The position numbers were made by a program, and so were the translations under genes. The notes below the pieces were generated by a model. It worked only from the letters and a program-made list of their open reading frames with translations, was not told the DNA's origin and ran no database searches. DNA of 64,000 nucleotides. It comes from Prevotella sp. 10(H) (GTDB lineage Bacteria; Bacteroidota; Bacteroidia; Bacteroidales; Dysgonomonadaceae). The stretch spans positions 310,001 through 374,000 of the forward strand of contig NZ_JOMI01000001.1 of assembly GCF_000711235.1 (NCBI RefSeq), read 5' to 3'. Positions 17,791-19,943 of this stretch are shown piece after piece (the stretch's first letter is position 1; the number at the start of each line of letters is the position of its first letter).

Positions 17791-18330
17791 ATGAAAAAAT
17801 CAGCACTTTATTTTGTGATAATCATTGCTCTTACTTGTTGCAACCTTATCAATCCCCGTTACAAGATGATGACGGACATCATGCTGCCCAACATAAACCC
17901 GGGCGATTATGTGAAGCTGGACAAGGAAGCCGACTCCTTTACCTATGGCGACATCGTACTATATGAATTCGGCATGGATGACGATTCGCAGCCGATGACG
18001 GGAATATACCGCATTGTCGGCCTGCCGAACGACAGCTTTGCCATAAAGAACAATATCTGCATCATTAACGGTGTAGAGAATAAAAACAGGCTGGTAAGGA
18101 AAGGCAACGCTGCCGACCAGCACGAAGAAGTTTTTCCCAACGGGGTAAAGGTTTCTACGCTCTTTCATCAATTGGATACGGTATACGGCACAATGAAAGC
18201 TATAAAGATACCCGAAGGACATTATTTCGTAATGGGCGACTACCGCAGCAATTCGGGCGACAGCCGCCTGCATGGCCCTGCTCCTGAAGGCAAAATATGG
18301 GGAAAAGTGACCGAAATAATAAGAAATTAA
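17791..18330 (+). CDS. Signal-peptidase-I-like lipoprotein lacking the catalytic Ser/Lys
   Basis: 179 residues. The fold motifs of S26A signal peptidases are present: box B region IMLPNINPGDYV (residues 30-41), box D region IYRIVGLPNDS (72-82) and box E MGDYRSNSGDSR (148-159). The nucleophile Ser that normally precedes M-x-P-T is Ile30, and the general-base Lys before R-V/I-x-G-L-P is Tyr73. The N-terminus is a lipoprotein signal (IIIALTCCN, acylated Cys16 or 17) instead of a membrane anchor. A genuine peptidase activity is therefore unlikely; a binding or chaperone role is inferred. It is coupled to the preceding secreted-protein gene, 4 bp away. Confidence 0.85.
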   Translation: MKKSALYFVIIIALTCCNLINPRYKMMTDIMLPNINPGDYVKLDKEADSFTYGDIVLYEFGMDDDSQPMTGIYRIVGLPNDSFAIKNNICIINGVENKNRLVRKGNAADQHEEVFPNGVKVSTLFHQLDTVYGTMKAIKIPEGHYFVMGDYRSNSGDSRLHGPAPEGKIWGKVTEIIRN

Positions 18331-18350
18331 GACCTATCTGTTATCCTTTT

Positions 18351-18381
18351 ATTACGGAATGAGTATATTTGTTCCGTAATA
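18351..18381 (+). promoter_or_regulatory. Promoter within a 10-bp inverted repeat, upstream of the MATE gene
   Basis: TATTACGGAA (18350-18359) and TTCCGTAATA (18372-18381) are perfect inverted repeats. The spacer between them holds TATATTTG (18364-18371), an exact TAnnTTTG -7 element. The layout is that of a promoter overlapped by a repressor operator. Transcription would start near 18378. Confidence 0.55.
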
Positions 18382-18396
18382 TAAGATTCTTATCAG

Positions 18397-18567
18397 ATGA
18401 AATGCCAAGTCTGCATATAGCTTATTACTATTGAAATAACTGCCGGAAAAACCTTTCCGACATATCCTGTATTTTCTTTACAGGGCGAAAAAACGTACAT
18501 TTTATAAATCAGCAATTATCCCGCATTCCTTTCTATGCGGCAATATGGCTATTTCAATAGTAATAAA
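18397..18567 (+). promoter_or_regulatory. Structured leader, candidate translational attenuator of the MATE gene
   Basis: A 17-bp perfect inverted repeat (18422-18438 with 18550-18566) has its right arm abutting the MATE start codon, so pairing would sequester the initiation region. Inside it are hairpins GGAAA/TTTCC (18445-18458), CCTGTA/TACAGG (18467-18484) and CCGCAT/ATGCGG (18521-18540). A 10-codon leader ORF (18402-18434, ending in three Tyr codons) terminates inside the left arm; an overlapping 7-codon ORF starts at 18397. The layout resembles leader-peptide attenuation as known for Bacteroides tetQ. Function is inferred. Confidence 0.55.
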
Positions 18568-19872
18568 ATGAATTTTACATATAAGCAGATCTGGCTCATC
18601 AACTTTCCTGTAATGATGAGCATCCTTGTCGAACAACTGATAAACATAACGGATGCAATTTTTCTCGGCCATGTAGGCGAGGTTGAACTCGGCGCATCGG
18701 CTATTGCCAGTATTTACTATCTGGCTGTGTATATGCTCGGATTCGGCTTTGGCATTGGACTGCAGGTAATGATTGCCCGCAGGAACGGAGAAAAGAATTA
18801 CGAAAGTACAGGCAGGGTATTTTTTCAGGGATTGTATTTTTTGGCTCTGTTGGCTGTCTTTCTTTTCATCCTTAGCAAAGCCCTCTCCCCTCTCCTGCTT
18901 CATCGCCTGATCAGTTCGGGTGAGGTATACGATGCTGTGATGAAATATATCGACTGGCGTTGCTTCGGCTTGCTGTTTGCCTTTCCGGCACTGGCTTTCC
19001 GCGCATTTTTTGTAGGGACTACCAATACAAAGATGCTGACATTGAATGCGCTGGCAATGGTATCTGTTAATATTCTTTTCAACTACCTGCTGATATTCGG
19101 CAAAGGCGGCTTTCCTGCACTGGGAATCACAGGGGCTGCAATGGCATCGTCACTGTCGGAACTTGTCTCGCTGCTTATATTCCTTATATATATTGCCTGT
19201 ATGAGCAACAGGCAGAGATACGGGATCCGCCCTGCTTTCGACTGGCAACTATTGCGGCAATTGCTGCGTCTGTCGGTATGGAGCATGCTGCAATCGTTTA
19301 TCAGTGTGGCGCCGTGGTTTCTGTTCTTCGTCACTATCGAGCATTTGGGCAAGAGCCAGCTGGCAATCGCAAATATAGTGAGAAGTATTTCTACACTGTT
19401 TTTTGTTATTGTCAATTCATTTGCCACTACTACAGGGTCACTTATCAGCAACCTGATCGGCGCAGAACAGAGTGATTATATACATATGGTCTGCCGTAAA
19501 GTCTTAAAATCGGGATATTTATCGGGAGTACCGATTATACTATTAGCTGCGGTTTTTCACAATCAGGCAATAGGTATATATACGGAAGATGTAGCATTAA
19601 CAGAAGCAGCATTCCCCACATTTATGGTTATGCTGGGTAATTATTTTATGGCGCTGCCCGCATATATTTATTGCAATGCCGTTACGGGAACAGGAAACAC
19701 AAGGGCTGCTTTTCTTTTCCAATGCATAACGATTGTTTTTTACCTGCTTTACCTGTGGATGATAAGCAATTTTGAGGATGTTTCGCTGACGATGTACTGG
19801 CTGGCGGAGTATATTTTTGTGATATTATTGTTTGTGTTTTCGTATGGGTTTATGAGGTGGAAGTATTTTTGA
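18568..19872 (+). CDS. MATE family multidrug efflux transporter
   Basis: 434 residues from the ATG at 18568; an upstream in-frame ATG at 18535 is rejected because it falls in the structured leader. Twelve hydrophobic helices are recognisable, with family hallmarks PVMMSILVEQLINITDAIFLGHVGEVELGA at the N-terminus (quoted in two parts: PVMMSILVEQLINITD and AIFLGHVGEVELGA) and GTGNTRAAF in the C-terminal half. MATE proteins export cationic drugs or metabolites in exchange for Na+ or H+ in the inner membrane. The upstream operator and leader suggest inducible expression. A bidirectional terminator follows. Confidence 0.94.
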   Translation: MNFTYKQIWLINFPVMMSILVEQLINITDAIFLGHVGEVELGASAIASIYYLAVYMLGFGFGIGLQVMIARRNGEKNYESTGRVFFQGLYFLALLAVFLFILSKALSPLLLHRLISSGEVYDAVMKYIDWRCFGLLFAFPALAFRAFFVGTTNTKMLTLNALAMVSVNILFNYLLIFGKGGFPALGITGAAMASSLSELVSLLIFLIYIACMSNRQRYGIRPAFDWQLLRQLLRLSVWSMLQSFISVAPWFLFFVTIEHLGKSQLAIANIVRSISTLFFVIVNSFATTTGSLISNLIGAEQSDYIHMVCRKVLKSGYLSGVPIILLAAVFHNQAIGIYTEDVALTEAAFPTFMVMLGNYFMALPAYIYCNAVTGTGNTRAAFLFQCITIVFYLLYLWMISNFEDVSLTMYWLAEYIFVILLFVFSYGFMRWKYF

Positions 19873-19881
19873 TGTTATTCT

Positions 19882-19925
19882 ATAATGAAACAGTTCGATA
19901 ATTGATTATCGAACTGTTTCATTAT
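19882..19925. terminator. Bidirectional terminator between MATE and cytolysin-like genes
   Basis: A perfect 19-bp stem (19882-19900 with 19907-19925) and a 6-nt loop between convergent genes. It begins 9 bp after the MATE stop and ends 18 bp before the stop of the leftward gene. Confidence 0.93.
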
Positions 19926-19943
19926 AATTGATTCTAATTCATC

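What the first reader, a model, noticed from the sequence alone, without database searches (positions are those of the whole stretch)
18397..18567. Leader-peptide-like attenuator upstream of a MATE exporter
A perfect 17-bp inverted repeat (18422-18438 with 18550-18566) places its right arm one base from the MATE start codon. Three hairpins fill the interior. A 10-codon ORF (18402-18434, ending Tyr-Tyr-Tyr-stop) terminates inside the left arm. If a ribosome on the leader blocks that arm, the start region is freed; otherwise it is paired. Bacteroides tetQ is known to use leader-peptide translational attenuation; a chromosomal MATE gene under such control would be new to me. A ligand-binding riboswitch is the alternative.
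Basis: partly seen in the sequence, partly recalled or inferred. Interest (0 to 1): 0.82.

Follow-up and report, generated by a model that had tools for sequence, protein, structure and literature searches.

The report
Antibiotic-sensing leader peptide before MATE exporter
Many gut and related Bacteroidales carry the same tiny hidden gene, encoding a five- to seven-residue peptide, just ahead of a drug exporter or an antibiotic-inactivating enzyme, and the RNA around it looks like a switch in which a stalled ribosome exposes the start of the resistance gene.

Summary
Overlapping it in another frame, 18397-18420 encodes MKCQVCI-stop. An ORF of this family, MK(WQ)[L/V/I]C[I/K/R]-stop, precedes the window's MATE and its eight closest orthologues, and 33 of 36 orthologues in a pattern-free survey of another genus; 0 of 46 more distant MATE homologues have it. 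One lineage lost exactly two codons (MKLCI), keeping the frame. The same leader precedes Vat-like acetyltransferases (13 loci); in 11 genomes leader, MATE and Vat-like gene are in tandem. A -7-like motif lies 33-54 nt upstream in 76 of 82 loci. Covering the leader with a ribosome-sized footprint lowers the computed cost of opening the MATE start by 5.0 kcal/mol (shuffled 0.02), although the pairing partners differ between lineages; the 17-bp arms occur only in the window. Best reading: a ribosome-stalling leader-peptide attenuator, chiefly translational here, sensing a ribosome-targeting antibiotic, perhaps of the streptogramin A class (inferred). Known mechanism; leader family not found in print in the searches made. 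No drug response was tested.

The parts
18346..18385 (.). Imperfect 14-bp inverted repeat (93% complementary) whose loop holds the -7-like element; end of the upstream gene's transcript or promoter region
   Evidence: I2
18364..18371 (+). TATATTTG, match to the Bacteroidota -7 consensus TAnnTTTG, 33 nt before the leader ATG
   Evidence: sequence; the motif lies 33-54 nt before the leader in 76 of 82 loci against 40 of 648 background segments. The consensus itself is recalled, not from a call
18397..18420 (+). Leader ORF ATGAAATGCCAAGTCTGCATATAG = MKCQVCI-stop, the conserved leader peptide
18402..18434 (+).
   Evidence: codon pattern; in MKLCI-type leaders this frame has no ATG/GTG/TTG in 10 of 11 loci
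18422..18438 (+). Left arm of the perfect 17-bp repeat; about half of it would lie under a ribosome stalled near the leader stop
   Evidence: (13.1 to 4.7 kcal/mol with the stall footprint)
18441..18462 (+). Interior hairpin 1 (TGCCGGAAA / TTTCCGACA)
18466..18484 (+). Interior hairpin 2 (CCTGTA / TACAGG)
18521..18540 (+). Interior hairpin 3 (CCGCAT / ATGCGG)
18550..18566 (+). Right arm of the 17-bp repeat, covering the MATE translation-initiation region
18568..19872 (+). MATE family efflux transporter, 434 aa
   Evidence: TIGR00797 179.5 bits against cut-off 147.4; PF01554
18580..18600 (+). 5' part of the MATE coding sequence predicted to pair with the leader ORF (18396-18419)
19881..19926 (+). 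21-bp perfect inverted repeat with a 4-nt loop just after the MATE stop, probably its terminator

Best explanation
18364-18600 is a leader-peptide attenuator of the MATE gene. Transcription starts just after 18371. A seven-codon leader (MKCQVCI) is translated first. When its ribosome clears, the RNA after the leader stop (18422-18438), with the leader ORF itself, pairs with the MATE start region (18550-18566 and 18580-18600) and shuts translation down. When a ribosome-targeting antibiotic stalls the ribosome near the end of the leader, its footprint covers the leader and about half of the left arm, the long helix cannot hold, and the MATE start is freed. Shown by sequence: the leader peptide is conserved at codon level across several families of Bacteroidales and shared by MATE and Vat-like genes. 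Shown by calculation only: leader occupancy releases the start. Inferred: the transcript start, the stalling, its drug dependence, and that the drug is one these genes counter, perhaps a peptidyl-transferase-centre drug of the streptogramin A kind.
For: Leader ORF upstream of the window's MATE and its eight closest orthologues (9 of 9) and of 33 of 36 listed orthologues at 52% identity or more in another genus, found by protein only; 0 of 26 further homologues and 0 of 20 paralogues, one of which has only 67 nt of upstream. Frame kept through a two-codon deletion (MKLCI) and through synonymous changes AAA/AAG, CTC/CTT, TGT/TGC, ATA/ATC. Reversed-pattern control: 0 matches. Same leader before Vat-like genes in 13 loci and leader-MATE-Vat tandems in 11 genomes. 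-7-like motif at a steady place. Opening cost of the start, 37 non-redundant MATE leaders: 10.2 free, 5.2 with the leader blocked; shuffled drop 0.02, and 30 of 37 exceed all 12 of their shuffles; the leader block beats every control block in 47 of 54 MATE and 8 of 11 Vat leaders. Leader x start-region pairing is better with its own partner than with permuted ones: -17.4 against -15.0, sd 0.41, 0 of 20000. Covariation in 29 aligned leaders: 51 cells changed on both sides against 19.7, sd 4.7 shuffled.
Against: The 17-bp arms are private to the window (1 of 79). Some MKLCI leaders show little computed release (L106, L108, L110, L132: drops 1.8, -0.1, 2.2, 0.3), and Vat leaders a weaker one (3 of 7 beat their shuffles). 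Helices 1 and 2 of the aligned group, the ones that tie up the leader, barely vary, so covariation supports mainly the hairpin next to the start; of the five measures two are less striking (pairs with double change 11 against 7.3, reached by 5 of 500 shuffles; pair types 35 against 32.7, reached by 56 of 500). The permutation result includes the window's own extreme value (-38.5); individually only 3 of 39 rank first. Close relatives inflate all counts. Two variable sites of the leader (13 and 20) are not third codon positions. MKCQVCI has no arrest motif that I know of, and nothing here shows stalling or drug response.
Confidence: 0.78

Rival explanations
1. Transcription attenuation: ribosome stalling on the leader prevents an intrinsic terminator between leader and gene, as in vmlR or msrD.
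For: A terminator-like hairpin with a T-rich tail lies between leader and MATE in L077, and the corresponding hairpin is kept in the aligned group (helix 5).
Against: In the window no terminator-like site is found on the + strand between leader and MATE, nor in L107; only these three loci were scanned. Start-region release is computed without any terminator.
Confidence: 0.2
2. Ligand-binding riboswitch controlling MATE translation; the short ORF is incidental.
For: Strong fold with three hairpins on a closing stem; MATE genes are under riboswitches elsewhere (recalled).
Against: No Rfam riboswitch at gathering threshold in the window or in 11 relatives. The element common to the groups is a coding one: frame kept, in-frame deletion. 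The interior differs between groups.
Confidence: 0.06
3. Amino-acid or general translation-stress attenuator: the leader senses starvation (Trp, Cys, Ile) or slow translation, not a drug.
For: Trp and Cys are rare residues, and the last sense codon is mostly AUA. VmlR is induced also by ribosome-assembly defects (PMC9226507 abstract).
Against: Trp is missing in MKC- and MKLCI-type leaders and Ile is replaced by Lys or Arg in others; there are no runs of one codon; the controlled genes are an exporter and a drug-acetyltransferase-like enzyme, not biosynthetic genes.
Confidence: 0.12
4. Phase-variable invertible promoter flanked by the 17-bp repeats, as at Bacteroides capsule loci.
For: Perfect inverted repeat of typical length and spacing; such switches are known in Bacteroides (recalled). 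One sigma-70-like site lies inside the repeats on the minus strand, 18543-18515.
Against: That site is at chance level (2 found in the region, 1.7 expected). No TAnnTTTG lies inside the repeats on either strand; the one found lies outside. The arms exist in 1 of 79 loci. Inversion itself could not be looked for.
Confidence: 0.02

Closest known systems
erm/cat-type translational attenuators, and tetQ of Bacteroides (PMC5418344, passages)
   Same: Short leader ORF, start region of a resistance gene sequestered, release by a stalled ribosome (computed here, not shown)
   Different: Controls a MATE exporter and/or a Vat-like acetyltransferase; in the window the leader and the RNA right after it pair directly with the start region; a leader peptide not found in print. 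The tetQ leader sequence was not compared
msrD leader MsrDL (MYLIFM) of Streptococcus (PMC10314930, abstract and passages)
   Same: Very short peptide ahead of a resistance gene; there stalling occurs at the stop codon, and here the end next to the stop is the most constant part
   Different: MsrDL works by transcription attenuation and senses macrolides; no sequence relation is claimed. MKLCI and MsrDL share Leu at position 3, which may be chance
vmlR leader uORF of Bacillus subtilis (PMC9226507, abstract and section 18)
   Same: Leader ORF ahead of a gene against pleuromutilins, lincosamides and streptogramin A
   Different: Tripeptide MIN, ABC-F protein, terminator/antiterminator plus SD hairpin; Firmicutes

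Membership tests
Ribosome-mediated leader-peptide attenuators of resistance genes | A translated short ORF in the 5' leader, conserved as peptide | tested here: met
   Conserved across MATE orthologues with many synonymous changes and one in-frame deletion; translation itself not measured
Ribosome-mediated leader-peptide attenuators of resistance genes | Leader lies between promoter and resistance gene | tested here: met
   -7-like motif 33-54 nt upstream of the leader in 76 of 82 loci; gene 117-262 nt downstream in 79 loci; no transcript start measured
Ribosome-mediated leader-peptide attenuators of resistance genes | Ribosome occupancy of the leader changes access to the gene's start (or a terminator) | tested here: met
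   Computed only: 30 of 37 MATE representatives exceed all shuffles; Vat 3 of 7
Ribosome-mediated leader-peptide attenuators of resistance genes | Drug-dependent stalling at a defined codon and induction of the gene | not testable with these tools
   Needs toeprinting and reporters
tetQ-type attenuator (CTnDOT) | Sequence or leader peptide related to the tetQ leader | not tested
   No tetQ leader was read; only the review's statement
Transcription attenuators (vmlR, msrD type) | Intrinsic terminator between leader ORF and gene | tested here: not met
   None on the + strand in the window or L107; one in L077
Riboswitches in Rfam | Match to a curated covariance model | tested here: not met
   0 in the window; only two tRNAs among 12 sources
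MATE family transporters | Score above curated cut-off | tested here: met
   TIGR00797 179.5 bits, cut-off 147.4
Vat streptogramin A acetyltransferases (downstream gene in relatives) | NF000311 score at or above 300 bits | tested here: not met
   226-232 bits in three proteins: best family match but below cut-off, hence called Vat-like
Invertible promoters | Promoter inside the inverted repeats | tested here: inconclusive
   No TAnnTTTG inside on either strand; one minus-strand sigma-70-like site inside, at chance level

The most novel reading that the evidence does not exclude
A Bacteroidales-wide arrest peptide, read from its stop codon backwards as [L/V/I]-C-[I/K/R]-stop with a variable N-terminal spacer (MKWQ-, MKCQ-, MKHQ-, MK-), holds a drug-bound ribosome at termination. 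It forms one portable sensor for peptidyl-transferase-centre drugs that has been wired, by different RNA helices, to a MATE exporter and to a Vat-like enzyme; this would imply that this MATE clade exports streptogramin A-like or related drugs.
Probability: 0.35. Interest if true: 0.82.

Novelty: new variant of a known kind. Interest (0 to 1): 0.7.

Why it matters
Drug-sensing leader peptides are known mainly from Firmicutes (recalled); in the passages of one review read here, tetQ is the Bacteroides case. A leader peptide conserved in several families of Bacteroidales, tied to both an exporter and a drug-modifying-type enzyme, would give these chromosomal genes an inducing signal and point to the natural drug they face. 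The peptide is 5-7 residues long, so its arrest motif can be tested residue by residue. The rewiring of the sequestering helix between lineages while the peptide stays nearly constant is a clean natural case of a conserved sensor with a drifting output.

Tried and rejected
That set is biased by the search pattern, so the protein-found set was also used.

17-bp helix as the conserved core: rejected (1 of 79).

Riboswitch, invertible promoter, starvation sensor: see rivals. A viral-contig scan with the leader pattern gave nothing. In a phylum sample 3 of 395 genomes matched, all in this order. A defence-protein library gave nothing for the MATE. No close Vat in the window's genome (best 42% over about 130 residues).

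Literature: searches (open PMC papers only) listed no paper on such a leader or peptide; most subscription papers are not in that library.

Dropped or unresolved rows: L037 (pattern hit inside a 623-residue open frame); L081 (MKRQLCK-stop with no gene in sense just downstream); L047, L052, L089 (leader with broken or missing MATE; L047 stayed in the counts); L090 (contig ends at the gene start); L117, L118, L120 (MATE without leader, repeat-filled upstream); L164 (partial Vat-like). Alignment A1 took 29 of the 33 leaders listed for that group (L082, L083, L084, L091 left out).

Full report
What is there. The window lies in a 4.3-Mb genome of nine contigs; it belongs to Bacteroidales, judged from its named relatives. 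The MATE gene (18568-19872) follows a signal-peptidase-I-like gene (17791-18330) after a 237-nt gap. The minimum-energy fold extends the helix, pairing 18396-18419 with 18580-18600 within the MATE coding sequence.

The leader. The closest MATE orthologues, in three congeners (61 genomes searched) and five named species (Parabacteroides gordonii, goldsteinii and faecis, Bacteroides salyersiae and nordii), share one upstream element with the window, ATGAARTG.CAA.T.TG.A.ATAGC. It encodes MKCQVCI, MKWQLCI, MKCQLCI or MKWQICR, then stop. In the window it is 18397-18420. The 26 other, more distant MATE homologues fetched (38-43% identity) have no such ORF within 330 nt (0 of 26).

Spread. By pattern (slightly different patterns, one mismatch allowed) the leader is in 8 of 393 genomes of the order (the window and six others before MATE; one, L037, is a chance hit inside a coding frame), 7 of 101 of the family, 24 of 301 of a second family, 2 of 5 of a third (one of them an orphan, L081), 27 of 119 and 5 of 15 of two genera, and 3 of 395 of a phylum sample, all within the order. 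The reversed-pattern control gave none in any of these. Samples overlap.

A pattern-free survey. Of the 36 listed places at 52% identity or more, 33 have the leader and three do not (L117, L118, L120). Here the leader appears in forms that no pattern had asked for: MKLCI-stop, MKHQLCI-stop and VKHRLCI-stop (GTG start). Relative to MKWQLCI, MKLCI is an exact two-codon loss; Ile is ATA or ATC, Leu CTC or CTT, Cys TGT or TGC, Lys AAA or AAG. Twenty upstream regions of more distant MATE paralogues have no such ORF (0 of 20, one with only 67 nt of upstream). This is coding evidence for the short peptide, and it shows that the end next to the stop is the more constant part.

A second gene. In 13 leader loci the gene downstream is not MATE but a Vat-like xenobiotic acetyltransferase (L060, L072, L078, L085-L088, L092, L096, L101, L104, L150, L152). 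Three of these proteins score 226-232 bits with the Vat streptogramin A family, best of all families but below its cut-off of 300. In the same 119 genomes, Vat-like proteins at E of 1e-60 or lower occur at 33 places in 30 genomes. At 11 of these, in 11 genomes, the gene lies 17-34 nt after a leader-bearing MATE (aligned coordinates; two of these tandems carry an in-frame stop, in the MATE of G618 and in the Vat-like gene of G869), at 11 others it has the leader itself, and at the remaining 11 neither was found or the place was partial. So leader, exporter and acetyltransferase form a recurring unit, with either gene able to stand alone. In two genomes (L137, L138) the Vat-like start codon stands where the leader start codon stands in L078, with 141 of 153 bases identical: the leader and what follows are absent there. 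The effect on expression is unknown. The window genome has no close Vat-like gene.

Promoter. TAnnTTTG, the Bacteroidota -7 consensus (recalled), lies 33-54 nt before the leader start in 76 of 82 loci, against 40 of 648 upstream background segments. In the window it is TATATTTG at 18364-18371. The transcript therefore most likely begins before the leader.

Does the leader control access? I computed the free energy needed to open the downstream start region (-15 to +12) with the leader free or covered. Over 54 MATE leaders the mean is 10.1 free and 5.0 covered; a block of equal size elsewhere leaves it at 10.0 (median), and the leader block beats every other position tried in 47 of 54; for Vat leaders 7.1, 3.3 and 8 of 11. 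Over 37 non-redundant MATE leaders it is 10.2 against 5.2; with the upstream part shuffled the drop is 0.02, and 30 of 37 exceed all 12 of their shuffles. In the window 13.1 falls to 4.7 under a footprint from the leader start to nine nt past its stop, whereas an initiation footprint changes nothing (13.1). That fits stalling near the end of the leader. In the non-redundant set Vat-like leaders behave the same way more weakly (6.7 to 4.1; 3 of 7 exceed their shuffles), and some MKLCI leaders hardly respond; there another route may act.

Different wiring. In the window the post-leader arm and the leader ORF pair with the start region. In the large MATE group TTGTTCAAC before the leader matches GTTGAACAA at the MATE start, and leader AATGGCAA matches TTTTGCCATT further down. 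In others AACTCTGT of the leader matches ACAGAGTT. In part of the MKLCI group GCTCAAC after the leader matches GTTGAGC at the start. Leader and start regions pair better with their own partners than with permuted ones: -17.4 against -15.0, sd 0.41, over 39 representatives of 65, 0 of 20000 permutations; without the window's -38.5 the own mean would be about -16.8 (by hand). In 29 aligned leaders of the large group (of 33 listed) the structure carries 51 cells changed on both sides against 19.7 (sd 4.7) shuffled, mostly in the hairpin just before the MATE start; the leader helices hardly vary.

How it most likely works. Shown: a conserved leader peptide between a promoter-like motif and a resistance-type gene. 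Computed: leader occupancy frees the start. Inferred: a drug-bound ribosome stalls near the leader stop. The association with a Vat-like enzyme suggests a drug at the peptidyl transferase centre; this is guilt by association. For comparison, MsrDL (MYLIFM) stalls at its stop codon with macrolides (PMC10314930, passages), and the vmlR uORF serves a gene against pleuromutilins, lincosamides and streptogramin A (PMC9226507, abstract and section 18). In the window no terminator-like site on the + strand lies between leader and gene, so control is probably translational; L077 has one, so transcription attenuation may add to it elsewhere.

Verdict. The finding is real and better than first described, with another ORF. 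The mechanism class is known; this leader family, its gene partners and its shifting helices were not found in the open literature searched, and no Rfam family other than tRNA matches in the loci scanned.

Noticed in passing
L137 and L138, around base 1500: Vat-like gene whose start codon occupies the place of the leader start codon of relatives; promoter-like motif and upstream sequence kept, leader absent. A natural comparison pair to L078.
   Followed up: partly
L117, L118, L120, about 200 nt before the MATE start: MATE orthologues without leader; upstream filled with short repeats around ATGATGCCTATCATCAATGCC and no TAnnTTTG within 200 nt.
   Followed up: partly
L081, 1501-1524: Leader-like MKRQLCK-stop followed by a stretch (TTTACAGAG) complementary to it but no gene in sense just after it; a possible orphan leader.
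   Followed up: no
window 18594-18621: Hairpin GCTCATCA/TGATGAGC inside the MATE coding sequence; similar complementary stretches are seen by eye at the same codons in several orthologues, perhaps part of the switch.
   Followed up: no
window 18346-18385: Inverted repeat around the promoter-like motif; could be the terminator of the signal-peptidase-like gene or an operator.
   Followed up: no
window 18568-19872: The MATE is closer to that of Parabacteroides gordonii (64%) than to those of its own congeners (56-57%), which hints at horizontal transfer.
   Followed up: no
L157, before base 1500: Vat-like gene after a MATE-like open frame of only 257 residues.
   Followed up: no
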